A stretch of 64,000 nucleotides of DNA from Winogradskyella forsetii (GTDB lineage Bacteria; Bacteroidota; Bacteroidia; Flavobacteriales; Flavobacteriaceae). Made by a program: the position numbers and the translations under genes. Of the stretch, positions 1-14,110 are shown piece by piece. The stretch is taken from the NCBI RefSeq assembly GCF_013394595.1, contig NZ_CP053348.1, positions 2,444,001 through 2,508,000 of the forward strand, read 5' to 3'. Below the pieces are notes generated by a model. It did not search any database. It worked only from the letters and a program-made list of their open reading frames with translations, and had not been told where the DNA came from. Each line of letters begins with the position of its first letter. Position 1 is the stretch's first letter.

Positions 1-405
1 ATTCCATACATCAACAGCCACTACCGAACCTTGACCGATTTTGACAATACCGGAATTGGAGGAAGCTCAATGGGAGGACTGATTAGTCTACACGCAGGAC
101 TGAAAAACCCCAAAGTTTTTGGTAAAATGATGATTTTTTCTCCCAGTTTATGGATTTCGAAAACGATTTTCAACAATACAAAAACCTTTCAACCGCTTGA
201 AGAATCGAAGATTTATCTCTATTCTGGAGGAAAGGAAAGTATTGAGCATTTACCTAATGCGCAAAAACTTGGCGCAATAATTAAAGAACGTATGGTAAAA
301 GGTTATCATATTGATTTTCATTTCTCCATTAACGAAGAAGGCAGCCATGCTGAAGAACATTGGCGCGAAGAATTCCCGAAAGCCGTAAAATGGCTCTATT
401 TTTAA
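1..405 (+). CDS. Putative esterase (alpha/beta hydrolase), 3' part only
   Basis: The reading frame is open from base 1, so the gene begins before the window; the TTG at 31 is an internal codon. About 134 residues of the C-terminal half are visible. The stretch YRTLTD followed about ten residues later by GGSSMGG matches the nucleophile elbow of the esterase D/Fes-type family (PF00756), the serine of SSMGG being the nucleophile. A histidine in EGSHAEEHW near the end is a good candidate for the catalytic His. It ends 10 bp before the M17 peptidase and is probably co-transcribed with it. A second esterase lies at the far end of the facing operon (7827-8531), so this cluster carries two. The substrate is unknown; a peptide, ester or amide made by the neighbouring ligases is an inference. 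Confidence 0.8.
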   Translation: MPYINSHYRTLTDFDNTGIGGSSMGGLISLHAGLKNPKVFGKMMIFSPSLWISKTIFNNTKTFQPLEESKIYLYSGGKESIEHLPNAQKLGAIIKERMVKGYHIDFHFSINEEGSHAEEHWREEFPKAVKWLYF

Positions 406-415
406 TTCAATAATT

Positions 416-1828
416 ATGACATACAAACACACTAAAACTTTAGATACTTCAAAAGATTTTATTCTACCCTGTAGAAAGGATAGTCTGCAAGCGATAAAAG
501 ATTTTCTTCCTATAGCAAAACCAGATTTTGATGGTAGTTTCTCAACGCATCAATTACTTTATGGTAGCCAAGGTAACAGAATATACCTCATAGGATTAGG
601 AGAAGAAAAACACAGTGCTCAATTAGAGAAGACATTTCAAAAATTGGCCTTTGACACCCAGAAATATTGGAATAAATCGATACAAGTTTATGCTGAGGAT
701 TTAACAGAAGATGAAGTGAGAAAAGCGGTCATTGGATTAGAAATGGCGCAATATGAAATTGGAGAATTCAAATCGAAAAAAGATAAACAACATAAAATAA
801 CCGTATCATTTTCTTCAACCAAAAGCGTTAAGAAAATTTTAGACGAAGGTAAATACACAGGAGAAACCATCAACAAAATCAAAGGCTTGGTTGATGCACC
901 ACCAAATATCAAAACCCCTGAATTTTTGGGGAATTGGGCTGAAAAATCGGCTAAAGATGCCAAGTATAAATGTACCGTTCTCAAATATAAAGAACTTAAA
1001 AAACAAGGTTTTGAAGCGGTTCTATCCGTTGGAAAAGGTAGCGTGAACAAACCTGTAGTTATCATTAACGAATACAATGGTAAAACCAGTAAAAAAGTGG
1101 ATATTGCTTTAGTTGGTAAGGGCATAACATTCGATTCTGGTGGATTATCCATCAAACCTTCCACCAACTTACATTACATGAAAAGTGATATGGGAGGTGC
1201 AGCCGTAGTTTTGGGTGTTGTGGAATTGATTGCCAAATTAAAACTAAAAATCAATATTGTTGGCATTGTCTGCTCAGCCGAAAATGCAGTAGATGCAGAA
1301 AGTTACCGACCTGGAGATGTTATTAATTCCTACTCTGGCAAAACCATAGAAATCATTGATACTGATGCCGAAGGCCGTTTGGTTTTAGCCGATGGTTTAA
1401 GTTATGCGGTGAAAAATTTAAAACCAGACTATCTAATTGATTTAGCAACCTTAACAGGAAGCGTCGTAAGAACCTTAGGTTATGAAGCCGCAGGAATGTT
1501 TACACATAATGAAGCTATGGCAAAAACCATGTCTGACATCGGCTACAAAGTACACGAACGCGTTTGGCAACTACCGATGTTCGAGGAATACAAAAGCGAC
1601 TTACATAGCGATATCGCCGATTTAAGGAATTTTAGTGGTAAACCATTAACTGGAGCCACAAATGCAGCCCAATTTTTAGAATCTTTTACCGAAGACCATG
1701 AAAATTGGATGCATTTGGATATTGCAGGTGTGTCTTTTGGAAGTTCGCCTTATGCAAAGATGAAAAGTGCTTCGGGTTATGGCATACAGTTGATTACTGA
1801 ATTTATTAAAGAAAAAGCTTTGAAGTAA
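416..1828 (+). CDS. Leucyl aminopeptidase family protein (peptidase M17)
   Basis: 470 residues. All catalytic and metal ligands of M17 aminopeptidases can be placed with a constant offset of 35 from E. coli PepA: K235, D240, K247, D258, D317, E319 and R321, in the motifs GKGITFDSGG, MKSDMGG and DTDAEGRLVLADGL. The family removes N-terminal residues from peptides using two divalent metals in a hexameric cytoplasmic enzyme. The N-terminal ~160 residues form the variable domain. It lies 10 bp after the esterase fragment and 90 bp before an ATP-grasp ligase. The setting next to five amide-bond-forming or -breaking genes suggests trimming or turnover of a peptide, but ordinary peptide catabolism is equally possible. 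Confidence 0.93.
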   Translation: MTYKHTKTLDTSKDFILPCRKDSLQAIKDFLPIAKPDFDGSFSTHQLLYGSQGNRIYLIGLGEEKHSAQLEKTFQKLAFDTQKYWNKSIQVYAEDLTEDEVRKAVIGLEMAQYEIGEFKSKKDKQHKITVSFSSTKSVKKILDEGKYTGETINKIKGLVDAPPNIKTPEFLGNWAEKSAKDAKYKCTVLKYKELKKQGFEAVLSVGKGSVNKPVVIINEYNGKTSKKVDIALVGKGITFDSGGLSIKPSTNLHYMKSDMGGAAVVLGVVELIAKLKLKINIVGIVCSAENAVDAESYRPGDVINSYSGKTIEIIDTDAEGRLVLADGLSYAVKNLKPDYLIDLATLTGSVVRTLGYEAAGMFTHNEAMAKTMSDIGYKVHERVWQLPMFEEYKSDLHSDIADLRNFSGKPLTGATNAAQFLESFTEDHENWMHLDIAGVSFGSSPYAKMKSASGYGIQLITEFIKEKALK

Positions 1829-1863
1829 TTTAGAGTTTTGTAAATTGGTTAAAGCTAACTAAT

Positions 1864-1915
1864 ATGTCTTGATTCTTGGCTTTATAAGCGAAGCGGTCTA
1901 GATTCTAATCTAAAT
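1864..1915. repeat. Short dispersed repeat (copy 1)
   Basis: The reverse complement of this stretch (ATTAGAATCTAGACCGCTTC, then CGCTT and, after a short gap, AAGAATCAAGA) resembles 14138-14170 (AGACCGCTGCGCTTTTAGAA then TCAAGAACATAG) and in part 50051-50062. It occupies the whole gap between the peptidase and the ATP-grasp gene. No function can be assigned. Confidence 0.5.
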
Positions 1916-1918
1916 ACC

Positions 1919-3118
1919 ATGCCTAAAAAACCATTAAATTTCCTCTGCATTTCTACCTATTTCAAAGGTGAAGATTTTCTTAAAAGCTGTAAAGCAGAAG
2001 GCAATAATGTCTATCTACTAACAAAGAAAAAACTCGACCAAGAACCTTGGCCATGGGACTTTATTACCGATACGTTTTATGTTGAGGAATGGAATCAAAG
2101 TGATGTTGTAAAAGGTATTGCCTATAAATTTCGCACTATAAAATTTGATCGTTTTGTGGCGCTCGATGATTTCGATGTGGAAAAAGTAGCATTGCTTCGT
2201 GAACACTTTAGAATGCCAGGCATGGGAAGAACCACAGCGCACTATTTTAGGGATAAACTCGCTATGCGCGTAAAAGCAAAAGAAGAAGGTGTCAATGTTC
2301 CAGAATTTACAGACTTATTCAACAACGAGACTATCAACTCTTACGCTGATGACGTGAGTCCACCTTGGCTGATAAAACCAAGAATGGAAGCTTCTGCAAC
2401 AGGAATTAAAAAAATTCATAGCAAGGATGAATTATGGCAAATCGTCAATGAATTAGGCGATGAACGCGATAATTATTTAGTCGAGAAATTTGCACCTGGC
2501 GATGTGTTTCATGTGGATGGTTTAAATGTCAACGGACAAGTTAAATTTGCCAGAGTCAGTAAGTACTTGGATACACCTTTCGAAGTCGCTCATGGAGGTG
2601 GCATTTTTAGATCTGCAAGTTCAGAAATTGGTTCGAAAGTAGAGAAAGGTTTACAAAAAATGAACGCACAGGTAATGAAAGCTTTTGGGATGCAGTTTGG
2701 AGCCTCACATACTGAATTCATTCAATCTAAAGCCACAGGCGAATTGTTCTTTTTAGAAACCTCTTCTCGTGTTGGTGGTGCTAATTTAGCCGAAATGGTA
2801 GAAGCCGCTTCTGGAATAAATCTCTGGGCAGAATGGGCAAGAATTGAAGGTGCTAACCTTAGAAAAAAAGCTTATAAGCTTCCAAAAACAAACAACCAAT
2901 ACGCAGGAATCGTAGTGTCTTTGAGTCGCTTTGAGCATCCTGATACTTCAAGTTTTACAGATGAAGAAATTGTTTGGCGAATGAACAAAGCTTGGCATAT
3001 TGGTTTGATTGTAGCTTCTGACTCTAGTGAGCGCGTCTTAGAGTTGCTCGATCAATATACAAAACGTATTGGAGAAGAATTTCATGCGAGTTTGCCTGCT
3101 CCTGATAAGTCGCTGTAA
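1919..3118 (+). CDS. ATP-grasp domain ligase
   Basis: 399 residues with a biotin-carboxylase/CarB-like ATP-grasp layout. An N-terminal Rossmann-like region (about 1-110) ends in PGMGRTTAHYFRDKLAMR, typical of the linker before the ATP-binding lobes. WLIKPRMEASATGIKKI (about 148-164) holds the ATP-contacting lysine and flexible loop, and YLVEKFAPGD the hinge glutamate. The region from HTEFIQSKATGELFFLETSSR to GGAN holds the metal-binding acids and arginine/asparagine. Enzymes of this fold couple ATP hydrolysis to joining a carboxylate to an amine through an acyl phosphate. It is the last plus-strand gene of the cluster and converges on four further ligase or amidotransferase genes. The substrate cannot be read from sequence. 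Confidence 0.85.
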   Translation: MPKKPLNFLCISTYFKGEDFLKSCKAEGNNVYLLTKKKLDQEPWPWDFITDTFYVEEWNQSDVVKGIAYKFRTIKFDRFVALDDFDVEKVALLREHFRMPGMGRTTAHYFRDKLAMRVKAKEEGVNVPEFTDLFNNETINSYADDVSPPWLIKPRMEASATGIKKIHSKDELWQIVNELGDERDNYLVEKFAPGDVFHVDGLNVNGQVKFARVSKYLDTPFEVAHGGGIFRSASSEIGSKVEKGLQKMNAQVMKAFGMQFGASHTEFIQSKATGELFFLETSSRVGGANLAEMVEAASGINLWAEWARIEGANLRKKAYKLPKTNNQYAGIVVSLSRFEHPDTSSFTDEEIVWRMNKAWHIGLIVASDSSERVLELLDQYTKRIGEEFHASLPAPDKSL

Positions 3119-3176
3119 GTGGGTTTCTCGTCCGAAAAAAGGACGTAACAAAAACTGTTAATTAATGAAATTTACA

Positions 3177-3207
3177 AAACCTGTAAGGTTTTAAATCCTT
3201 GTAGGAT
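3177..3207. repeat. Palindromic CCTGNAAGG-type repeat between convergent genes
   Basis: Reads AAACCTGTAAGGTTTTAAAT then CCTTGTAGGAT. An imperfect inverted repeat able to form a hairpin on either strand. It fills the gap between the stops of two convergent genes, so it may serve as a bidirectional terminator. Related copies lie at 17431, 32158, 51184 and 54241/54367. Confidence 0.6.
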
Positions 3208-3211
3208 ATAA

Positions 3212-4414
3212 TTATCCTTCAAAAAACCCAGTACTACCGCCAACCCAAGTTTTATCCTTATTGTATTTTACGCCTACCATTTCACCTTTGCTCAAACGCA
3301 TCAGATTACTGACTATTTCGGTTTTATTGGTTTTGGAATTGTGGAGCATCATCATTCTAATTTCACATTTAGCTGGTACATCCATGGTTTCAATGACTGG
3401 TGCATATGCCACTTTTTCTTGAAGTAAATAATTGGATTTATTGGTAATACCATTAATCATGTCTTTGGTTACATGAATTTGTACGCCTGCACCTGCAAAA
3501 GAATACAACGGTTTTAGCACATAGTTTTCTAAATCTGTTGGAATGCGCTCTAATTTATTTAAATAATAAGACTTTGGCACATAATCGCCTTTTAGTAAAG
3601 GCATAGTGTACTTACTGATTCTGTAAAACCAGTTGGGATGACCAATCCATTCCGCATCAATCTCATCTTGAAAACTGAATTCCGTTTTAAGATCGGTTCT
3701 TTGGTGTAATTCGTCAAAAATAATACGATTGTATATTTTTAGAACCTCCACTTCGCCTCCATTCTCGTCTAAATAAAAAAGTGTTTTTCCTCTTTTTTTC
3801 AAATCCGTAATACATAGTACTTTAATACCTAACTTTTCTGCTGTGGCATAAAAATCAATAGCTGTAGCCTGTTGTTCTGGTTCTATTTCTAATAGTATAA
3901 CCTGTTTTGGATTCGTGTCGCCAACAATTTCTTGTTTCAGCAAGTCTAGATAATCATTAGAAGTCATTCCATTTAAATGTTGGGTAAAACCCTGAGGAAT
4001 AACATTTCCAAAATGTTCCACATATTTTTGCCCTACTAATTCTTGAAAATAATACAACGAAGGAAACCCTTGTAATTCAATTAATTTTGGCGTTAAATTA
4101 CCGTCTTCATCCTTGCAAATCCCAAAATCGAGTTGAATAAACTTAGACTGTTCATCTTCATTTGGTACAATGGTATTGGGATCAAAAAATGCGCCATCAG
4201 TCAGCTCCTTAAAGTTCGGTTTGTTAATAACCGACATTATATCATCACAGGCTTCCACTAATTTTTGTTTTAATGCCTTAGGCAAAAAAACAGGTGTTTC
4301 CGCAATTTTAAAAGGCACATGATAATCAAATGTTCCATCAATATCTTTTAAAAAGGCTTGATACTTTTCTTCTGAAAAATTAGAATTATAGGCGTTTCTG
4401 ATCGGCTTTATCAT
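3212..4414 (-). CDS. Probable circularly permuted ATP-grasp protein
   Basis: 400 residues. IELQGFPSLYYFQELV, near residue 113, looks like the acidic metal-binding end of an ATP-grasp fold (the E-x-N/Q-G-x-PS pattern). YVLKPLYSFAGAGVQI, near residue 300, looks like the ATP-binding lysine and glycine-rich loop, followed by NYLLQEKV (hinge) and KCEIRMMML. In a normal ATP-grasp the lysine loop comes before the acidic motif; here the order is reversed, as in circularly permuted families such as the glutathionylspermidine-synthetase-like group. That reading is my inference. It is the last gene of the five-gene minus-strand operon, 6 bp after the amidotransferase. A peptide- or amide-forming ligase role is likely; substrates are unknown. 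Confidence 0.6.
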   Translation of the reverse strand: MIKPIRNAYNSNFSEEKYQAFLKDIDGTFDYHVPFKIAETPVFLPKALKQKLVEACDDIMSVINKPNFKELTDGAFFDPNTIVPNEDEQSKFIQLDFGICKDEDGNLTPKLIELQGFPSLYYFQELVGQKYVEHFGNVIPQGFTQHLNGMTSNDYLDLLKQEIVGDTNPKQVILLEIEPEQQATAIDFYATAEKLGIKVLCITDLKKRGKTLFYLDENGGEVEVLKIYNRIIFDELHQRTDLKTEFSFQDEIDAEWIGHPNWFYRISKYTMPLLKGDYVPKSYYLNKLERIPTDLENYVLKPLYSFAGAGVQIHVTKDMINGITNKSNYLLQEKVAYAPVIETMDVPAKCEIRMMMLHNSKTNKTEIVSNLMRLSKGEMVGVKYNKDKTWVGGSTGFFEG

Positions 4415-4420
4415 GTTCTA

Positions 4421-5239
4421 TTAGGACATTACAGGTTGTTTATTTTTAATAATCGCATTCTGGATAAACTTAGGTAATATGGTTTTGTAAGTCAAAGCAA
4501 CTTTATCCGGATCATCAATACGGTCCATCATCTGAGCATACTTTTCTTTACCAAAACTATCAATCACTTTTTTCTTGTTTTCTTCCCTATTAAAATAGGC
4601 CTCCATACTTACTGGCTCTGCTTCAGGATGAAATTGGGTTCCCACAAATTCTTCAGAAAAACGAACGGCCATTATAGCACGTTCTAATTCTACATGTGTC
4701 CTAATTTTTTCTAAACTCAAAATGGTAGCACCCTGTTTTTTAAATACCGTCAATTTTGGTTGAATCAATTGCCAGTCTCTAGAATCAACAGCATAAAACG
4801 GGTCATTCAAGCCTTCAAAAATGAGATCATTATGACCTTTTTTGGTTTGATGAACCTTTAAAATTCCGAACGACGTACTTCGTCTTGGTTTAATTGCTCC
4901 CAGTTGAAAATAATCGCAAATCACCTGAAACGAATAACAAATAAAAAAAACATGCTTTTTTTGTTCTGCATTAGTTTTATTAATATCCCAAAGGTTCTGC
5001 ATCAACTGTAAATAGGGTTTTCTCCATTCGCCTTCTTCCAATGGACTTCCTGGTCCACCACTCGAAATATAAATATCGAATGACGTATCTGGTAATTCTT
5101 GTTTTGCCCTGACGTTGAAGATTTGGATACTAACGTCATCAGTAAACACATGCGCAATTTCTGCTATACAACGCAACCCTTGGTTGGGCTCGTCATTGTT
5201 CATGTCTAAAATTGCTAGTTTTAATTTTTCTGTTTTCAT
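4421..5239 (-). CDS. Class I glutamine amidotransferase-like protein
   Basis: 272 residues. The triad can be placed: C101 in FICYSFQ, H204 and E206 in FHPEAE. SSGGPGSP (59-66) is the oxyanion-loop region. Class I amidotransferases release ammonia from glutamine, or in some stand-alone members hydrolyse gamma-glutamyl amides. The nucleophile elbow is odd: the usual GxCxGxQ glycines are replaced (F-I-C-Y-S-F-Q). No synthetase domain is fused to it, so it either feeds ammonia to a neighbouring ligase or cuts a gamma-glutamyl product. It sits 6 bp before the permuted ATP-grasp gene and 111 bp after the YbdK-type gene, on the same strand. Confidence 0.82.
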   Translation of the reverse strand: MKTEKLKLAILDMNNDEPNQGLRCIAEIAHVFTDDVSIQIFNVRAKQELPDTSFDIYISSGGPGSPLEEGEWRKPYLQLMQNLWDINKTNAEQKKHVFFICYSFQVICDYFQLGAIKPRRSTSFGILKVHQTKKGHNDLIFEGLNDPFYAVDSRDWQLIQPKLTVFKKQGATILSLEKIRTHVELERAIMAVRFSEEFVGTQFHPEAEPVSMEAYFNREENKKKVIDSFGKEKYAQMMDRIDDPDKVALTYKTILPKFIQNAIIKNKQPVMS

Positions 5240-5310
5240 GTTTATTTATCGTCTTTCGAATTACGTTGAAATTTATCTTCGCAAGAAATATATGTCTTAC
5301 TCTATAATCC

Positions 5311-5330
5311 TCAAGATAAACTTCAGCGGT
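5311..5330. repeat. 20-bp dispersed repeat (copy 1)
   Basis: TCAAGATAAACTTCAGCGGT is identical to 22281-22300, 17 kb away. Both copies lie in gaps between minus-strand genes. No function is visible. Confidence 0.7.
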
Positions 5331-5350
5331 CATCTGATAAGTAGGTTATT

Positions 5351-6445
5351 TTATAATCCGGAAATTGTTTGTTCAGTAACGTAATCCACAACTTTGGTAA
5401 GATCGTTTGTTTGCTTAAATATTTCTAATTGACGGTCTGCTCCTGTACCATTTTTAAGTATTTGATGCAAATATTCAATTTCTTTACGAGAGCCTAAGTC
5501 ATCCACAACATCATCAATAAAATCCAATAGCTCTAACATTAAGAGTCTGGTTTCAACTTCAGCTTGCTTTCCAAAATCAATCATTTTTCCATCAATTCCA
5601 TAACGGCTTGCTCGCCATTTATTTTCGTTAATCAACGCTCGGTGATAATTCATGAAATTTAGATTGTGCCTTCTTAAGTCATATAACTTAGCCACCAATG
5701 CTTGAATTATTGCCGTAATACATACGGTTTCATTCACGGTTAATGGTATGTCACAAATCCTGACTTCTAAAGTTGGGAAAAAGGGATGCACTCTAATATC
5801 CCACCAAATTTTCTTTGGGTTATCAATACATTTAGTTTTAACCAAAAGATTAACGTAATTCTCGTAATGCGCATAGTTTTCAAAAATTCCAGGAATACCT
5901 GTTCTAGGAAATTTATCAAACACCTTTGATCTAAATGATTTAAAACCTGTATTTCTTCCCTCCCAAAACGGAGAATTAGTTGACAACGCATACAAATGCG
6001 GTAAAAAATAACGCATGGCATTTACTAAATGTATGGCCATTTCTTTATCCTCCATACCAACATGTACGTGTAATCCAAAAATTAAATTAGAACGTGCAGT
6101 ATCTTGAAGTTCAGTAATAATCTCATCATAACGAGGGTTCGGCGTAATCAGTTGGTGTTCCCATTTCGAAAACGGATGTGTACCTGCCGCACCAATTTTA
6201 AATCCTAAATCATTCGCAATATTAGATACTGATTTTCGCAAATGTGAAATTTGTTCTCGAGCATCCGTAATATCCTCACAAATATTTGTACCTACTTCTA
6301 CAACGGCCTGATGCATTTCTGCCTTGCACTGATCGCCCATAACTTTTGACGCCTCTGTTACAATTTGCTGGTCGTGTGAAATTAATTCGCGAGTAACAGG
6401 GTCAATAATTTGGTACTCTTCTTCAATACCTAAAGTAAACTTCAT
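5351..6445 (-). CDS. YbdK-type carboxylate-amine ligase (GCS2 family)
   Basis: 364 residues, the usual length of the GCS2/COG2170 family, with the start motif KFTLGIEEEYQIID, then AEMHQAVVEVGTNIC, NLIFGLHVHVGM and LSTNSPFWEGRNTGFKSFR. The fold is that of glutamine synthetase and plant-type glutamate-cysteine ligase; E. coli YbdK has weak gamma-glutamylcysteine synthetase activity, but the physiological substrates of most members are unknown. HVHVG and the N-terminal EEE are the expected metal and ATP ligands. It lies 58 bp downstream of the ATP-grasp-with-tail gene. With that ligase and the amidotransferase it points to gamma-glutamyl or similar amide synthesis outside ordinary glutathione biosynthesis. 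Confidence 0.92.
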   Translation of the reverse strand: MKFTLGIEEEYQIIDPVTRELISHDQQIVTEASKVMGDQCKAEMHQAVVEVGTNICEDITDAREQISHLRKSVSNIANDLGFKIGAAGTHPFSKWEHQLITPNPRYDEIITELQDTARSNLIFGLHVHVGMEDKEMAIHLVNAMRYFLPHLYALSTNSPFWEGRNTGFKSFRSKVFDKFPRTGIPGIFENYAHYENYVNLLVKTKCIDNPKKIWWDIRVHPFFPTLEVRICDIPLTVNETVCITAIIQALVAKLYDLRRHNLNFMNYHRALINENKWRASRYGIDGKMIDFGKQAEVETRLLMLELLDFIDDVVDDLGSRKEIEYLHQILKNGTGADRQLEIFKQTNDLTKVVDYVTEQTISGL

Positions 6446-6503
6446 ATATAGCGGTTGGTTAGATTAAACCTGACCACAATACATAGTCAGGTTTTTAAAT
6501 TAT

Positions 6504-7802
6504 CTATTTTTTAGCTGCTTTCTTCTTAGGAGTAGCCATTTTTACTGTCGTTTTCTTAGCATCTGTTTTTGCTTTGGTCGTCTCAGTTTTAGTAGAAGCT
6601 GCTTTTTTTATTGGAGCTTTCTTTATAGGTGCTTTAGTCGCTGTAGTTTCTTTAGCTACTACCGTTTTAGCAGGTGCCTTTTTTACAGCTGCCTTCTTGG
6701 TAACCTTCGTTTTTACAGGCACTTTAGCAGCTGTCTTCTTTTCCGCAGTCTTGGCTTTGTTCGCTGAAACTTTGGCAGAAGCTGACTGGGATGCTGCCTT
6801 CTTTGCCGTTGGCTTTTTTGAAGCCGCTTTTTTAGCAGGTGTCTTTGAAGCTTCCATCTGGTCTTTTACAAAAGTTCCCCAAGTAAGGTTCATTTTACCT
6901 TTTTTGTATTGTTTTGCTTTGTCAATGGCCATATTCGCAGCATTCTCTACAATCCAATCAAAATTATCTTGACCTACAGAATTTATATCTGCATCTGGCG
7001 CAGGATTACAAAAATCAATCGCATAAGGCACACCATCTCTAATAGCAAACTCAACTGTATTGAAATCGTAACCTAAAGCTTTGTTTAATTTGATACAGTA
7101 TTCTTCAACTAAATCCAAGATTTTTTTATCCACAGGTTCGCCATCCAAAACATAGCGTAAATGATGAGGGTTTCTAGGTTCGTATTGCATAATATGCACT
7201 TTGTCAGTTCCTAACACATAACATCTAAAGTATTCCGTGAAGTTAATTTCCTCTTGGAGCATCATCACTAAATTCTCGGTTTCTCTATGCTTTTCCCATA
7301 AATCATCAGGATTTTCTACACGGTAAACACTTTTCCATCCGCCACCATCATGTGGTTTCATATACGCTGGAAAGCCAATAGTATTGAACATCTTTTCCCA
7401 ATCAAAAGGGAATTTCATGTTTCTAAAGGAGTTTTCATCCGTACCTTCTGGTCGATGCGATGATGGCAATATGAAGGTCTTTGGTACTGGAACCCCAATT
7501 TTTTCAGCTAGTGCATTGTTGAAAAACTTTTCGTCTGCACTCCACCAAAATGGATTGTTTATGACGGCCGTTCCTGTAATGGCAGCGTTTTTTAAATAGG
7601 CTCTATAAAACGGAACATCTTGCGATATTCTGTCTATAATTACTGCATATTCATCAGATTTTGCTTGTTCTACAGTATCAATTGATACGGCTTCTGCAAC
7701 CATATCCTTAATGCCCTGAGACTTAATTTTTTCGTTAACTCTGTCAATAAATGCCCAAGGAAAGGTATCTTCTTGACCGAATAAAATGCCTATTTTTTTC
7801 AT
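6504..7802 (-). CDS. ATP-grasp ligase with histone-H1-like Lys/Ala-rich C-terminal tail
   Basis: 432 residues in two parts. Residues 1-317 are a D-Ala-D-Ala-ligase/RimK-like ATP-grasp: YMKPHDGGGWKSVY (147-160) with the ATP lysine and loop, MLQEEINFTEYFR (hinge), and NTVEFAIRDGVPYAIDFCNP (248-267) with the metal-binding E, D and N. From about residue 318 to the end there are ~115 residues made almost only of K, A, T, P, S and V in KKAA/KKAP-like repeats, as in eukaryotic H1 tails and bacterial histone-like tails. Such tails bind nucleic acid or other polyanions; here the role is unknown and the tail is unusual on a small-molecule ligase. It is the second gene of the minus-strand operon, 24 bp after the esterase. 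Confidence 0.88.
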   Translation of the reverse strand: MKKIGILFGQEDTFPWAFIDRVNEKIKSQGIKDMVAEAVSIDTVEQAKSDEYAVIIDRISQDVPFYRAYLKNAAITGTAVINNPFWWSADEKFFNNALAEKIGVPVPKTFILPSSHRPEGTDENSFRNMKFPFDWEKMFNTIGFPAYMKPHDGGGWKSVYRVENPDDLWEKHRETENLVMMLQEEINFTEYFRCYVLGTDKVHIMQYEPRNPHHLRYVLDGEPVDKKILDLVEEYCIKLNKALGYDFNTVEFAIRDGVPYAIDFCNPAPDADINSVGQDNFDWIVENAANMAIDKAKQYKKGKMNLTWGTFVKDQMEASKTPAKKAASKKPTAKKAASQSASAKVSANKAKTAEKKTAAKVPVKTKVTKKAAVKKAPAKTVVAKETTATKAPIKKAPIKKAASTKTETTKAKTDAKKTTVKMATPKKKAAKK

Positions 7803-7826
7803 ATTTAAATGGATTAGTTAGTTTGT

Positions 7827-8531
7827 TTATAATTTTGATAAATAATGTGGAAACATTCTGTTCCATAAGGGCCAATCGTGTTCAGCCCATTTATGTTCAT
7901 CATACCAGAAAGGTATGTTTTTTTCTGTTAATATCCCAGCCAATCGCTTATTGGCATCTAAACAAATATCCCATTCCCCTACGCCTAGTACAATTTTCAT
8001 GTTCCATAAATCTGGATGATTCGCTCCTGGTAAAAAATCCACGGGATTATTAAAAAACACATTGTCATCATAATGACCATCAACAAAAGATTTAATATCG
8101 AATGATCCACTCATGCTAAACATATGGCTCACACGATCTGGATGTCTAAAGGCAAAATTAGCCGCTTGGTATCCACCAAAACTAGGTCCGGCGACAGCGA
8201 CTTTATGCATTCTTTTTTCTTCACATATTTTATTGACCACTTCATTCATAATAAACTCATCGAACCAAGCGTGATTTTTCGCGCGATCTGCAGGATGAAT
8301 ATTCTTATTATACCAACTCAATTCATTGATACTATCAGGACAATAAATTTGGACCAAACCTTGCTCTGCAAACCAACGCACAGATTCCACAAGTCCCATA
8401 TCCCGACACTCATTATGTTTCCCCATGGTTGTAGGAAATAAAATTACAGGATAACCAGCATGTCCGAAAACTAGCATTTCTATATCCTTACTTAAAGTTG
8501 GTGAGTACCATTTAAAATGTTCTTCCTTCAA
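7827..8531 (-). CDS. Esterase family protein (alpha/beta hydrolase)
   Basis: 234 residues. GPSFGG with S117 is the nucleophile elbow, GEWD with D188 a likely acid, and EHDW with H218 a likely catalytic His. The family is PF00756-like (esterase D, antigen 85, enterochelin esterase), cytoplasmic here because no signal peptide is present. It is the first gene of the five-gene minus-strand operon; the ~195 bp upstream must contain the operon promoter. Because a second esterase opens the facing plus-strand operon, hydrolysis of an ester or amide seems integral to the pathway. The substrate is not predictable. Confidence 0.85.
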   Translation of the reverse strand: MKEEHFKWYSPTLSKDIEMLVFGHAGYPVILFPTTMGKHNECRDMGLVESVRWFAEQGLVQIYCPDSINELSWYNKNIHPADRAKNHAWFDEFIMNEVVNKICEEKRMHKVAVAGPSFGGYQAANFAFRHPDRVSHMFSMSGSFDIKSFVDGHYDDNVFFNNPVDFLPGANHPDLWNMKIVLGVGEWDICLDANKRLAGILTEKNIPFWYDEHKWAEHDWPLWNRMFPHYLSKL

Positions 8532-8727: not shown

Positions 8728-9516
8728 CTAGTTCAAAACTTTCATTGCCTCAAAAACTAATTTCGCTACTGCCATAGCGCCTTCAGGTTGAAAATGGGTT
8801 TGATCAGAACTCCCGTCAGGATAAGCTATATACTTATCTTTAGGCAAGTTCATAAAGTAATTTTTACTAACAAAGTCGCGACCTTTTTTACTGAAATAAT
8901 CCATTGACAATTTATTGAGGTCAATAAAATAGGCTCCCAATTCATCAGCAACTTCAAATGCTGCGTCAGGATATTCGCCATGTACATTTTCTAAATGATC
9001 ATCTTTCCATGGGTAGTTTCTTGCTACAGGAGTTAATATGATTGGTTTTGCCTTTTTTTCGAAAGTCTGTGTAGTAAATAATCGTAAAAACTCCTTATAC
9101 CCCTCTATATCAACGTAACGCTCTGGATTTTTCACAGATGCATCATTATGACCAAATTGCATCATCACGATATCGCCTTCCTTGAGATTTTCATAAACCG
9201 ACCTCCAAAGCCCTTCCTGAAAAAATGTTCTGGTACTGCGACCACCTCTTGCACGATCATCAACTATAACGCTGTCAGCTTGGATTAAAGGTTTGAAATT
9301 ATTCAATTCCGACGCCGTAAATAATTCTTGAAAAACTTGTCCCCAACCTGTTTTGGGATATTTCTTTTGATAATAATCCTGTCCTTCTCCGTAATTAACG
9401 GCATAATTTGCTACAGTCGAATCTCCGATTAAGTAAATAGTTACTGGATTATTGTCTCGTGATGTACAATGACTCATGAGTACAAAAAGTAATATTGTCG
9501 CTAATACGTTTTTCAT
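8728..9516 (-). CDS. SGNH/GDSL hydrolase lipoprotein, rhamnogalacturonan-acetylesterase-like
   Basis: 262 residues. The N-terminus (hydrophobic stretch ending LMSHC) is a lipoprotein signal, so the mature protein should be anchored to a membrane by Cys17. The SGNH blocks are present in order: IGDSTV (Ser nucleophile), RGGRSTRTF (Gly), QFGHND (Asn) and DQTHFQPEGA (Asp and His). This arrangement is typical of carbohydrate esterase family 12 enzymes that deacetylate pectic rhamnogalacturonan. No polysaccharide-utilisation genes (SusC/SusD) are nearby, so it seems to be an isolated gene. It is not part of the amidoligase operon downstream, from which it is separated by 196 bp. Confidence 0.85.
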   Translation of the reverse strand: MKNVLATILLFVLMSHCTSRDNNPVTIYLIGDSTVANYAVNYGEGQDYYQKKYPKTGWGQVFQELFTASELNNFKPLIQADSVIVDDRARGGRSTRTFFQEGLWRSVYENLKEGDIVMMQFGHNDASVKNPERYVDIEGYKEFLRLFTTQTFEKKAKPIILTPVARNYPWKDDHLENVHGEYPDAAFEVADELGAYFIDLNKLSMDYFSKKGRDFVSKNYFMNLPKDKYIAYPDGSSDQTHFQPEGAMAVAKLVFEAMKVLN

Positions 9517-9899
9517 TTTTTTGTTTTATGCTGCGCATATTAATACAGAATATTGAGCACCAAAGTATTTACACATTATAAGATAAGTTATTCAAAATAG
9601 CAGGCACATATAAATTCTACTATTGCAATTACAGCTCGTTAATACTGATTCATTCTAAATTTGCTACAAATTTAATGATGTAAGTTTTCTTCAATAACTT
9701 AAATCAATAACTCCTGAAGCTAACTCAATACTCGTAACCAAAGTTAGTTTTTAAAACTCGAAAAACCAATAGTTTCTAACTCATATCTATTTATTGCTTG
9801 TAGGGATAATACTTTAAAGATTTTATAATAAAAGCTAATTTTCAATTCTTAAAGACTAACAAAATGAGTAATTTTGTGGTGCTTAAAAATTTATATACA
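9517..9899. other. AT-rich divergent intergenic region
   Basis: About 380 bp between the divergently transcribed esterase gene and fumC. No ORF, repeat or RNA gene was seen. The fumC promoter element at 9869-9876 is the only site I can support. Confidence 0.5.
9869..9876 (+). promoter_or_regulatory. Candidate -7 element of the fumC promoter
   Basis: TAATTTTG matches the Bacteroidota sigma-A -7 consensus TAnnTTTG. It lies 24 bp before the ATG at 9900 and overlaps the first codons that a start at 9864 would need, so it argues for the later start. No convincing TTG -33 element was found. Confidence 0.5.
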
Positions 9900-11297
9900 A
9901 TGACTTACAGAATAGAAAAAGACACGATGGGCGAGGTTAAAGTACCTGCCGATAAACTTTGGGGTGCGCAAACCGAGCGTTCTCGAAATAACTTTAAAAT
10001 TGGTGCACCTGCTTCAATGCCTTTAGAAATCGTATATGGCTTCGCTTATCTCAAAAAAGCAGCGGCTTATGCCAACTGTGAATTGGATGTTTTATCTCAA
10101 GAAAAGCGTGATTTAATTGCAAAAGTATGTGATGAAATTTTAGACGGACAGCATAATGATCAATTTCCTTTGGTCATTTGGCAAACAGGTTCTGGTACGC
10201 AAAGCAACATGAATGTCAATGAAGTTGTCGCCAATAGAGCGCATCAAATGGCAGGAAAAACAATAGGCGAGGGCGAAAAAACCATTCAGCCTAATGATGA
10301 TGTGAATAAATCTCAATCGTCTAACGACACCTTTCCAACAGGAATGCATATTGCAGCCTACAAAAAAGTGGTCCAAACCACGATTCCTGGTGTTATTCAA
10401 TTACGAAATACATTGCATAAAAAAGCGCTGGAATTTAAAGAAGTTGTAAAAATTGGCAGAACTCATTTAATGGATGCCACACCTTTAACCTTAGGTCAGG
10501 AATTTTCGGGTTATGTATCCCAATTGGATCACGGATTAAAAGCATTGGAACATACATTAGCACATTTAAGTGAACTGGCTTTGGGTGGAACCGCTGTTGG
10601 CACTGGCTTGAACACACCAGAAGGATACGATGTTTTAGTGGCTAAATACATCGCTGAATTCACGGATTTACCTTTTATTACTGCCGAAAATAAATTTGAA
10701 GCCTTGGCGGCTCATGATGCTATTGTAGAAACCCATGGTGCCTTAAAACAATTGGCGGTTTCCTTGAACAAAATCGCTAATGATATTAGAATGATGGCCT
10801 CTGGTCCGCGTTCAGGCATTGGAGAAATTATCATTCCAGCTAACGAACCTGGAAGTTCTATTATGCCCGGAAAAGTGAACCCAACCCAATGTGAAGCCTT
10901 GACCATGGTCTGTGCGCAAGTGATGGGTAACGATGTTGCAATTTCTGTTGGTGGTACACAAGGGCATTACGAGCTGAATGTTTTTAAACCAATGATGGCG
11001 GCGAATATTTTACAATCTGCGCAATTGATCGGTGACGCTTGTGTAAGTTTTGAGGAGCATTGTGCTAGTGGAATTGAGCCTAACCACCAAGTCATTAAGG
11101 AATTATTGAATAATTCGTTAATGCTAGTTACCGCTCTAAATACTAAAATCGGATATTATAAAGCTGCGGAAATCGCAAATACCGCTCATAAAAATGGTAC
11201 TACCCTCAAAGAAGAAGCTGTAAATTTAGGTTACGTTTCTGCTGAAGATTACGACGAATGGGTAAAACCTGAAAATATGGTCGGAAGTTTAAAATAA
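9900..11297 (+). CDS. fumC: Fumarate hydratase class II
   Basis: 465 residues with the start chosen at 9900. The reading frame also has an ATG at 9864, but starting at 9900 gives [21 protein letters not shown], which aligns with the N-terminus of E. coli FumC, and the earlier ATG overlaps a promoter-like element. The family signature [11 protein letters not shown] (active-site loop) and [14 protein letters not shown] and [11 protein letters not shown] are present. It converts fumarate to L-malate in the TCA cycle, as an iron-independent homotetramer in the cytoplasm. It is transcribed alone; the next plus-strand gene begins 82 bp later and is unrelated. Confidence 0.97.
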
Positions 11298-12871: not shown

Positions 12872-14110
12872 ATGTCCATTCTAATTACCAATATCAAACA
12901 GCTTTTACAAGTCCACGATACTAATGTCACAATTGTAAAAGGAAGTGACATGAAAGATTTATCCATTCTAGAAAATGCCTATGTCTATATTGAGCACGAT
13001 ACGATTATAGAATTTGGTACAATGGATGAATACAGTACAATTGAAGCTGAAACAATCATTGATGCTACTGGAAAAATAGTCTTACCGTCTTGGTGCGATT
13101 CGCACACGCACATTGTTTATGCAGGCGATAGAACATCTGAGTTTGTCGATAGAATAAACGGTTTATCTTATGCTGAAATTGCCAATAATGGCGGCGGCAT
13201 TTTGAATTCGGCGAAAGTGCTTCAAGACACTTCAGAAGATGATTTATATGCGCAATCCATAAAAAGATTAAACGAACTTATCGCGATGGGCACTGGCGCT
13301 ATAGAAATAAAAACAGGCTATGGTTTAACTTTAGAAGCGGAATTAAAAATGCTTCGCGTTATCAAGCGGATCAAGCAAGAGAGTTTAGCAAAAATTACAC
13401 CAACCCTTTTAGCTGCTCATGCTATTCCAGCAGAATTTCAATCCAAAAAACAAGATTATATAACATATATCACAGAAGAATTAATACCGAAGGCTGCAGA
13501 GTTGCGCATTACTAATTACATTGATGTCTTTTGCGAGGAAGGCTATTTTGATATTGAAGATACCGAAGCCATTTTAGAAGCCGGAAAAAAATACAATCTA
13601 AAACCAAAAATTCATGTGAACCAGTTTAATATACTTGGAGGTGTTGCGCTTGGTGTAAAATACAATGCCCTTTCTGTAGATCATTTAGAAGAATTAGGTG
13701 ATAATGATATTGAAGCTTTAAAAGGAAGTGATACTATGCCTGTGGCGTTACCCGGTTGTTCATATTTTTTAAGTATTCCTTATACGCCTGCCAGAAAACT
13801 CATTGATGCTGGTTTACCATTAGCCATTGCAACGGATTATAATCCAGGTTCTGCACCAAGTGGAAACATGAATTTCATTGTTGCTGCAGCATGTGTAAAA
13901 TTAAAAATGACGCCCGAAGAAGCCATAAACGCAGCAACCATTAATGGCGCTTATGCCATGGGAGTTAGTAATATGTACGGTAGTATTACCAGAGGAAAAA
14001 AAGCAAATCTCATTATTACAAAACCTATGAATCATTATAGTGAAATTCCATATGCGTTTGCTCATAACCCAGTTGAACAAGTCATTATCAATGGTCAACT
14101 TTTAGAATAA
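12872..14110 (+). CDS. hutI: Imidazolonepropionase
   Basis: 412 residues, the normal HutI length. The metal site DSHTHIVYAGDR is preceded by IVLPSWC; EIKTGYGL, LLAAHAIP, KIHVNQF (metal His), VDHLEEL and ATDYNPGSAPSGNM follow in the usual amidohydrolase order. It opens the imidazolone ring to N-formimidoyl-L-glutamate, the third step of histidine degradation. hutG, the next pathway step, lies 1.3 kb downstream on the same strand but is separated by an unrelated minus-strand gene; hutH and hutU are not in the window. Transcription probably starts in the short gap after the upstream terminator. Confidence 0.96.
   Translation: MSILITNIKQLLQVHDTNVTIVKGSDMKDLSILENAYVYIEHDTIIEFGTMDEYSTIEAETIIDATGKIVLPSWCDSHTHIVYAGDRTSEFVDRINGLSYAEIANNGGGILNSAKVLQDTSEDDLYAQSIKRLNELIAMGTGAIEIKTGYGLTLEAELKMLRVIKRIKQESLAKITPTLLAAHAIPAEFQSKKQDYITYITEELIPKAAELRITNYIDVFCEEGYFDIEDTEAILEAGKKYNLKPKIHVNQFNILGGVALGVKYNALSVDHLEELGDNDIEALKGSDTMPVALPGCSYFLSIPYTPARKLIDAGLPLAIATDYNPGSAPSGNMNFIVAAACVKLKMTPEEAINAATINGAYAMGVSNMYGSITRGKKANLIITKPMNHYSEIPYAFAHNPVEQVIINGQLLE

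What the first reader, a model, noticed from the sequence alone, without database searches (positions are those of the whole stretch)
1..8531. Two-armed cluster of three ATP-grasp-type ligases, a YbdK ligase, an amidotransferase, an aminopeptidase and two esterases
Eight consecutive genes all make or break amide or ester bonds, arranged as two operons pointing at each other (plus: esterase, M17 peptidase, ATP-grasp; minus: esterase, ATP-grasp with tail, YbdK, amidotransferase, permuted ATP-grasp). No ordinary glutathione, peptidoglycan or purine gene is present. Such grouping suggests synthesis and turnover of an unknown amide- or peptide-linked compound, possibly gamma-glutamyl. Comparative work on amidoligases has noted ATP-grasp/GCS2 neighbourhoods; whether this exact set has been characterised I cannot verify.
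Basis: partly seen in the sequence, partly recalled or inferred. Interest (0 to 1): 0.8.

Follow-up and report, generated by a model that had tools for sequence, protein, structure and literature searches.

The report
Uncharacterised four-ligase amide pathway of Bacteroidota
A set of genes for making and breaking amide bonds, which looks like a remote cousin of the glutathione machinery, is kept together and inherited together across many Bacteroidota and probably makes and recycles a small peptide-like compound that nobody has identified.

Summary
The eight genes are real (p1 starts before the window): p1 esterase, p2 M17 aminopeptidase, p3 L-amino-acid-ligase-type ATP-grasp; then convergent p8 esterase, p7 ATP-grasp with basic tail, p6 YbdK, p5 class I amidotransferase-like protein, p4 permuted ATP-grasp.

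The minus arm recurs across Bacteroidota orders. In another family of the same order both arms form one co-directional operon. In 296 sampled Bacteroidota genomes p4 is in 90; 87 of these have p7, 85 have p6. p3 comes with p7 in 64 of 64, p5 with p7 in 68 of 69, although p4 and p7 lie apart in 39 genomes. Within 15 families that vary, p4 and p7 agree in 108 of 112 genomes (null maximum 86).

p4 models as the glutathione synthetase/GspS/YgiC fold (Z 24-27). Best reading: a dedicated pathway for a small, probably gamma-glutamyl, amide-linked compound. It is probably not the main thiol: bshC is in 290 of 296 genomes. Substrate and product are unknown. Nucleic-acid-binding-like tails on p7 are unexplained.

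The parts
1..405 (+). p1: PF00756 alpha/beta hydrolase (esterase), 5' end outside the window; whole gene L025:11638-12405, 255 aa
416..1828 (+). p2: M17 leucyl-aminopeptidase-type metallopeptidase
   Evidence: Peptidase_M17 377 bits; TDAEGRL seen in the translation (meaning of the motif recalled)
1919..3118 (+). p3: ATP-grasp ligase of the L-amino acid ligase kind
   Evidence: 4wd3 L-amino acid ligase E 1.1e-22; with p7 in 64 of 64 genomes
3212..4414 (-). p4: circularly permuted ATP-grasp ligase, fold of YgiC / GspS / eukaryotic-type glutathione synthetase
   Evidence: model pLDDT 86; YgiC Z 26.9, GspS Z 24.7, human GSS Z 23.8; KP...GAGV segment aligns weakly with YgiC (E 0.22)
4421..5239 (-). 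p5: class I glutamine-amidotransferase-like protein with conserved C101, H204, E206
5351..6445 (-). p6: YbdK-family (GCS2) carboxylate-amine ligase; GIEEE = GhExE signature
6504..7802 (-). p7: ATP-grasp ligase (R2K/LysX-like), core about residues 1-315; C-terminal K/A-rich tail of about 117 aa
7827..8531 (-). p8: PF00756/Abhydrolase alpha/beta hydrolase, conserved S117, D188, H218

Best explanation
The locus encodes one dedicated pathway that builds, trims and recycles a small amide-linked (peptide-like) compound. Shown (statistically): the four ligases p3, p4, p6 and p7 and the amidotransferase-like p5 belong to one co-inherited unit. Inferred from their families: YbdK (p6) activates a glutamate gamma-carboxylate and joins it to an amine; p7 (an ordinary ATP-grasp) and p4 (permuted ATP-grasp of the glutathione-synthetase/peptide-spermidine-ligase fold) add two more amide bonds, p4 perhaps the terminal residue or amine; p3, an L-amino-acid-ligase relative, supplies or extends a dipeptide. 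p5 with its Cys-His-Glu most likely hydrolyses a gamma-glutamyl bond, like the glutamine-amidotransferase-like thiol peptidase reported beside another GCS2-like ligase family, or else delivers ammonia. M17 (in other lineages an M29 or a beta-aspartyl peptidase) and the two alpha/beta hydrolases recycle or unmask the product. In logic it resembles the glutathione/trypanothione cycle, built from diverged parts, in bacteria that already have bacillithiol genes. The order of steps, the amino acids and the product are not known.
For: Conserved minus arm: of 23 loci from the all-phyla genome scan with p5 (so p5 in 23 by construction), p4 in 23 (two pieces in L007 and L013, cut by the contig end in L015), p7 in 23 (a fragment in L012, two pieces in L007), p6 in 22, p8 in 19. 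In genus g13 the eight genes are co-directional with no ORF of 110 aa or more between them (L110, L111, L112, L114; L113 starts at p2 at its contig end). Phyletic profiles over the same 296 genomes: p4&p7 87 of 90, p4&p6 85 of 90, p3&p7 64 of 64, p5&p7 68 of 69 (limits E 1e-8 for p4 and p7, 1e-60 p6, 1e-20 p3, 1e-30 p5), with p4 and p7 further than 15 kb apart or on other contigs in 39. Within 15 varying families p4/p7 and p4/p6 each concordant in 108 of 112, null maxima 86 and 82. In 15 p4-less genomes that hold p5, p5 lies 2.2-2.7 kb from p7 in 14, and a PF14403-like permuted ATP-grasp match sits beside p7 in 9 of 15, two of them over the family's cut-off. An M29 peptidase stands in the place of p5 in 5 loci, L067, L073, L075, L117, L119 (family read on L073). 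p4 fold; p3; p6. In family f28 p4 is in frame with a sodium:solute symporter (L098) or beside one (L105), which favours a small-molecule substrate.
Against: No substrate, product or expression data. 34 of 89 p4 neighbourhoods hold none of p5-p8 above 100 bits (some are short contigs), so in many genomes the parts are scattered. p7 occurs without p4 in 19 of 106 genomes, p6 without p7 in 12 of 101. p4 is about 9-15 percent identical to its structural relatives: fold, not function. p3, p2 and p1 are usually not near p4 (6, 5 and 4 of 89). Thresholds were chosen by me; relatedness is controlled only at family level.
Confidence: 0.65

Rival explanations
1. A peptide-tagging system: p7, p4 and YbdK attach a short peptide to proteins (perhaps on ribosomes or the nucleoid, where the basic or HhH tail of p7 would place it), and p5 and M17 remove it.
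For: p7 resembles R2K_2 weakly; R2K enzymes are proposed protein-peptide ligases (PMC4431377 sections 5 and 7). Of 67 p7 ORFs with the anchor motif, 24 have tails of 40 aa or more; the 32 tails of 20 aa or more have median K+R 0.30 and D+E 0.06. Three kinds: H1-like, RGR (AT-hook-like, naming mine) and K/A linker plus helix-hairpin-helix. The HhH tail also sits on ribosomal protein bL21 of this genome (61 percent over 77 aa). YbdK belongs to the same ligase superfamily as the Pup ligase (PMC2588565 passages).
Against: 29 of 67 p7 have under 10 tail residues. No Pup-like small gene was noticed, but none was searched for; gaps between the eight window genes are at most 111 bp. In-frame joining or neighbourhood of p4 with a solute symporter and an L-amino acid ligase and aminopeptidase in the set point to small molecules.
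Confidence: 0.12
2. A glutathione-like low-molecular-weight thiol pathway (p6 makes gamma-Glu-Cys or similar, p4 acts as glutathione synthetase, p5/p2 as gamma-glutamyl and Cys-Gly peptidases, p1/p8 as S-acyl-thiol hydrolases).
For: Same folds as the plant/yeast-type pathway; for each step of a gamma-glutamyl cycle a candidate enzyme is present (inference).
Against: The host has BshA (565 bits) and bshC matches in 290 of 296 genomes, 88 of 90 with p4, so the niche is probably filled. No glutathione synthase or GshA model hit over its cut-off for the window proteins. Two further ATP-grasps are unexplained.
Confidence: 0.12
3. A storage or cell-surface amide polymer pathway linked to cyanophycin.
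For: In genus g13 the operon lies next to cyanophycin synthetase, cyanophycinase and a beta-aspartyl-peptidase-like gene, with glycogen branching enzyme on the other side (read on L110); an Asparaginase_2/beta-aspartyl-peptidase-like gene is beside p3 in L212. The own genome has cyanophycin synthetase elsewhere.
Against: Cyanophycin synthetase over cut-off in 14 of 53 genomes with p4 and 4 of 27 without, of 80 tested: not associated (Fisher p 0.27).
Confidence: 0.05
4. Separate housekeeping functions that happen to be neighbours.
For: Genes are dispersed in many genomes (34 of 89 p4 loci without p5-p8).
Against: Dispersed genes are still co-inherited.
Confidence: 0.04

Closest known systems
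Glutathione / glutathionylspermidine / trypanothione synthesis (GCS2 + permuted ATP-grasp GSS or GspS)
   Same: p6 is GCS2 family; p4 has the GSS/GspS fold over its whole length
   Different: No hit over cut-off to GshA, GshB or glutathione synthase models; two extra ATP-grasps; bacillithiol genes already present
E. coli YgiC/YjfC peptide-spermidine ligases; fungal Cp1B of E-64 synthesis
   Same: Best structural matches to p4 include them (Z 26.9, 26.6; Cp1B Z 22.6)
   Different: 10-14 percent identity; no polyamine or epoxysuccinate gene noticed beside it. Activities taken from PMC12568646 passages and a reference title there
[quoted passage not shown]
   Same: Same pairing of a GS-fold ligase with a GATase-like protein, predicted there for glutathione-like peptide metabolites (passages read)
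   Different: Another ligase family, in proteobacteria; the passages that I saw mention no ATP-grasp trio
R2K-clade ATP-grasp (R2K_2, CDC123 relatives)
   Same: Weak profile match; two lysines K149 and K157
   Different: Under the Pfam cut-off; other R2K features unclear
L-amino acid ligases (BacD, 4wd3)
   Same: p3: 4wd3 E 1.1e-22, BacD about 1e-4
   Different: Genomic setting with YbdK, p7 and a permuted ligase

Membership tests
YbdK / GCS2 carboxylate-amine ligases (p6) | curated family score; GhExE signature | tested here: met
   PRK13515 543 bits over 371; G6-(I/V)7-E8-E9-E10 in 10 of 10; signature from PMC2588565
YbdK / GCS2 carboxylate-amine ligases (p6) | ATP-dependent gamma-glutamyl amide formation | not testable with these tools
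   needs enzyme assay
Permuted ATP-grasp, GSS/GspS/YgiC superfamily (p4) | whole-length fold of this superfamily | tested here: met
   Z 26.9, rmsd 3.3, 345 aligned, YgiC, model pLDDT 86
Glutathione synthetase or GspS orthologue (p4) | curated family score | tested here: not met
   no NCBIfam hit at E 0.01; Pfam only ATPgrasp_ST 18 bits under 31.4
R2K clade (p7) | Pfam R2K_2 over gathering score | tested here: not met
   20.5 bits under 26.2
R2K clade (p7) | second lysine/arginine in the loop after the strand-2 lysine | tested here: met
   K149 and K157 invariant in 13 of 13, mapped by eye; feature from PMC4431377 section 5
R2K clade (p7) | linker lysine absent; (D/E)xN motif | tested here: inconclusive
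   K92 near the linker is invariant; D263-x-x-N266 instead of DxN, mapped by eye
Class I glutamine amidotransferase fold (p5) | Cys-His-Glu triad | tested here: met
   C101, H204, E206 in 10 of 10; assignment of the triad by motif, recalled
L-amino acid ligase family (p3) | significant homology to solved members | tested here: met
   4wd3 1.1e-22, 3vot 1.2e-8
Graspetide (RiPP) cluster | precursor peptide gene beside the ATP-grasp | tested here: inconclusive
   gaps between the eight genes are at most 111 bp in the window; no systematic precursor search
Cyanophycin system | CphA associated with the unit | tested here: not met
   14 of 53 with p4, 4 of 27 without
Anti-phage defence | match to PADLOC models | tested here: not met
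   0 families for 7 proteins, p1 not submitted
Pupylation | Pup-like substrate gene | not tested
   -

The most novel reading that the evidence does not exclude
A reversible peptide-tagging system of Bacteroidota that acts at ribosomes or the nucleoid: the p7 ligase is brought there by tails of three kinds (histone H1-like, AT-hook-like, and a helix-hairpin-helix shared with ribosomal protein bL21), a tag assembled by YbdK, p4 and p3 is put on, and p5 plus an aminopeptidase take it off.
Probability: 0.1. Interest if true: 0.88.

Novelty: new variant of a known kind. Interest (0 to 1): 0.62.

Why it matters
About half of the sampled Bacteroidota genera hold these ligases (63 of 140 for p4, 77 of 140 for p7) as a co-inherited unit with no characterised member that I could find in the open library. 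If it makes one small molecule, that is an unknown widespread metabolite in an environmentally important phylum, and the unit gives a ready list of single-gene knockouts for comparative metabolomics. It also offers four distinct amide-bond ligases as biocatalyst candidates.

Tried and rejected
Main-thiol reading: weakened by BshA in the host and bshC in 290 of 296 genomes. Cyanophycin link: neighbours in genus g13, no association in 80 genomes. Defence: PADLOC no match for 7 proteins. Mobile or viral carriage: p4 and p7 gave no tblastn match at E 1e-5 in 72,556 plasmid records; the p7 core none in 50,697 phage records; the viral-contig scan with A4 gave 71 pattern matches and no relative. p3 and p6 do have plasmid relatives (168 and 72 records, all under 60 percent identity); the two p6 records that I opened have other settings. 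Spread outside Bacteroidota was not properly tested: one search scanned all phyla, but with one sequence of p5, which finds near relatives only. Searches of p4, p5 and p7 against solved structures by sequence gave only weak hits. The p7 model is middling (pLDDT 65), so its structural ranking (Ddl, RimK, carbamoyl phosphate synthetase and others near Z 10) does not choose a relative. Neighbours seen but judged lineage-bound: a lyase cluster after p7 in 6 loci (histidine ammonia-lyase, read on L199), an amidohydrolase cluster before p4 in 13 (read on L139 and L104), an amylase-like ORF after p4 in 6 (named from the letters only).

Papers: seven searches on the set and three on its parts listed no title or abstract start that describes this set; several listings were cut (for instance 20 of 299, 15 of 42), and I read passages of PMC12568646, PMC7824862 and PMC2588565 and the abstract, passages and sections 5 and 7 of PMC4431377. 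The most relevant review of amidoligase neighbourhoods (Iyer 2009, doi 10.1039/b917682a) is not held, so prior mention of this set cannot be excluded.

Rows dropped or limited: 2 of 40 p7 neighbourhoods (L187, L190) lost p7 in my ORF filter; tail statistics use 67 of 109 p7 ORFs, 42 lacked the anchor motif, and close relatives are counted apart; a first tail count was wrong in method and is not used; G066 is counted as unlinked though its p4 is split over a contig end; 18 of the 19 p7-only neighbourhoods could not be fetched. The 15 varying families were picked by me from the family labels; the CphA counts were counted by hand and typed into.
Full report
WHAT IS THERE. Window 1-8531 holds eight ORFs in two convergent arms. 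Plus: p1 esterase (start outside the window, whole gene in L025), p2 M17 aminopeptidase, p3 ATP-grasp. Minus, in transcription order: p8 esterase, p7 ATP-grasp with tail, p6 YbdK, p5 class I amidotransferase-like, p4 permuted ATP-grasp. Family assignments are; p4 matches no family over its cut-off. The genome is held as one contig of 4.5 Mb; the nearest named relatives found are Winogradskyella.

CONSERVATION. A scan of one genome for each of 84,980 species with p5 gave 23 loci, all Bacteroidota by their titles (near relatives only). The minus arm recurs from Flavobacteriaceae to Cytophagales, Cryomorpha, Saprospiraceae, Sphingobacteriaceae and Flaviaesturariibacter, with one member missing in the more distant ones (p6 in L021, p8 in L022-L024) and about 4.8 kb between p6 and p5 in L023: p4 and p5 in 23 of 23 (p5 was the query), p7 in 23 (one a fragment), p6 in 22, p8 in 19; p2 and p3 in 14, plus p3 fragments in L012. 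Some loci end at contig edges, so true absences may be fewer. In an even sample of 296 Bacteroidota genomes p4 is in 90 (63 of 140 genera). I fetched all 89 other neighbourhoods: above 100 bits, p6 is near p4 in 47, p7 in 46, p5 in 39, p8 in 35, p3 in 6, p2 in 5, p1 in 4, and none of p5-p8 in 34.

ONE UNIT. In genus g13 (another family of the order) p1-p2-p3-p8-p7-p6-p5-p4 are co-directional without an ORF of 110 aa or more between them (L110, L111, L112, L114; L113 begins at p2 at its contig end). These are five species of one genus, so one event. Independent evidence is co-inheritance: p4&p7 in 87 of 90 genomes with p4, p4&p6 in 85 of 90, p3&p7 in 64 of 64, p5&p7 in 68 of 69, while p4 and p7 lie apart in 39 genomes (one of these, G066, is a contig break). 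Against: p7 lacks p4 in 19 of 106, and p6 lacks p7 in 12 of 101. In 38 readable p7 neighbourhoods (37 of the 39 unlinked genomes and G013) p6 lies within 6 kb behind p7 in 10, directly behind it in 9, and in 5 of the 89 p4 loci p5 is near p4 without p6 or p7: the unit can split into parts that are all kept. To control for descent I used the 15 families that I found to vary in p4: p4 and p7 agree in 108 of 112 genomes, p4 and p6 in 108 of 112, against maxima of 86 and 82 in 20,000 within-family permutations.

REPLACEMENTS. In five loci the place of p5 is taken by a peptidase cluster read as M29 on L073. In genomes without p4 but with p5 (15), p5 lies 2.2-2.7 kb from p7 in 14, and a PF14403-like permuted ATP-grasp match sits beside p7 in 9 of 15 (17.6-34.5 bits, two over cut-off; in the other 6 nothing was detected there). 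In L212 the order is p7, PF14403 ligase (37.3 bits over 32), p5, esterase, p3, then a beta-aspartyl-peptidase-like gene on the other strand. So the stable logic appears to be: ordinary ATP-grasp p7, a permuted ATP-grasp, p5, an esterase, p3.

ENZYMES. p4: model pLDDT 86; VIA-align on Foldseek's candidates gives Z 26.9 with YgiC (rmsd 3.3, 345 aligned), 24.7 GspS, 23.8 human glutathione synthetase, 22.6 Cp1B. Its YVLKPLYSFAGAGV segment aligns with the corresponding YgiC segment (E 0.22, weak). YgiC and YjfC are called peptidylpolyamine synthetases in PMC12568646 (passages). p6: E 1.3e-58 to YbdK 1r8g, GhExE kept. p3: E 1.1e-22 to L-amino acid ligase 4wd3. p5: C101, H204, E206 in 10 of 10. p8: S117, D188, H218 invariant in 9 of 9 (the triad is my reading). 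p7: ATP-grasp by fold (Z near 10 with many families), not assignable more closely.

CONTEXT CLUES. The host has BshA, and bshC matches in 290 of 296 genomes, 284 over cut-off, so a second general thiol is probably not needed. Two lineages have isopeptide-type peptidases near the unit. In family f28 p4 is in frame behind a sodium:solute symporter in L098 (867 aa) and beside one in L105. [quoted passage not shown] p6 and p5 repeat that pairing.

THE TAILS. p7 tails vary: of 67 p7 with the anchor motif 29 have under 10 residues, 14 have 10-39, 24 have 40 or more; longer tails are basic (median K+R 0.30, D+E 0.06, 32 tails of at least 20). Three kinds: H1-like (window), RGR/AT-hook-like (L022, L024) and K/A linker plus helix-hairpin-helix (L002, L003, L006 by eye; HHH_5 shown for L003 and L006). 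The last kind also ends bL21 of this genome. I cannot say whether this aims p7 at nucleic acid or ribosomes, or binds an acidic product.

MECHANISM. Shown: co-inheritance, conserved order, folds, conserved catalytic-type residues. Inferred: gamma-glutamyl bond by p6, two further amides by p7 and p4, dipeptide by p3, hydrolytic trimming by p5, p2, p1 and p8. Not known: substrates, product, order, role.

NOVELTY. Co-localised amidoligases are a known kind of gene neighbourhood (PMC4431377 section 7 says so). Seven searches of the open library on the set listed no account of it, but listings were partly cut and the key 2009 review is not held. I call it a new variant of a known kind.

Noticed in passing
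G000:C1:4061806-4062045 (L215:1066-1752): Ribosomal protein bL21 carries a K/A-rich linker and helix-hairpin-helix tail that is 61 percent identical over 77 aa to the tail of the p7 ligase in another Winogradskyella (L006).
   Followed up: partly
L012 (Polaribacter filamentus); L083 (G154): Decaying copies of the unit: in L012 p7 and p3 are fragments and p8, p2, p1 were not found, p4-p6 whole; G154 keeps p6-p5-p4 but not p7.
   Followed up: no
L098:8037-10637: 867-aa open frame joining a sodium:solute symporter to p4; L105 has the symporter as a gene beside p4, and L095 looks partly in frame (from the letters).
   Followed up: partly
L110:11361-16641: Cyanophycin synthetase, cyanophycinase and a beta-aspartyl-peptidase-like gene behind the eight-gene operon (one small ORF between); glycogen branching enzyme in front.
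   Followed up: yes
L185, L188, L191, L193, L194, L199: A lyase behind p7 in six genomes (histidine ammonia-lyase, family read on L199); an Amidohydro_3-type protein stands before p4 in 13 loci (read on L139 and L104).
   Followed up: partly
L017:12051-13208, L018:12048-13208: An extra secreted esterase-like ORF between the two arms (read from the letters, not searched).
   Followed up: no
window 8728-9516, 9864-11297, 12872-14110: GDSL hydrolase, fumarase and an imidazolonepropionase-like ORF beside the unit (the last two named from the letters); fumarase stands next to p8 only in close relatives and elsewhere in two Polaribacter loci.
   Followed up: partly
G000:C1:54049 (L217): The genome also has an ordinary RimK (374 bits over 331) followed by an ORF resembling a succinylglutamate desuccinylase/aspartoacylase (the latter from the letters).
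   Followed up: no
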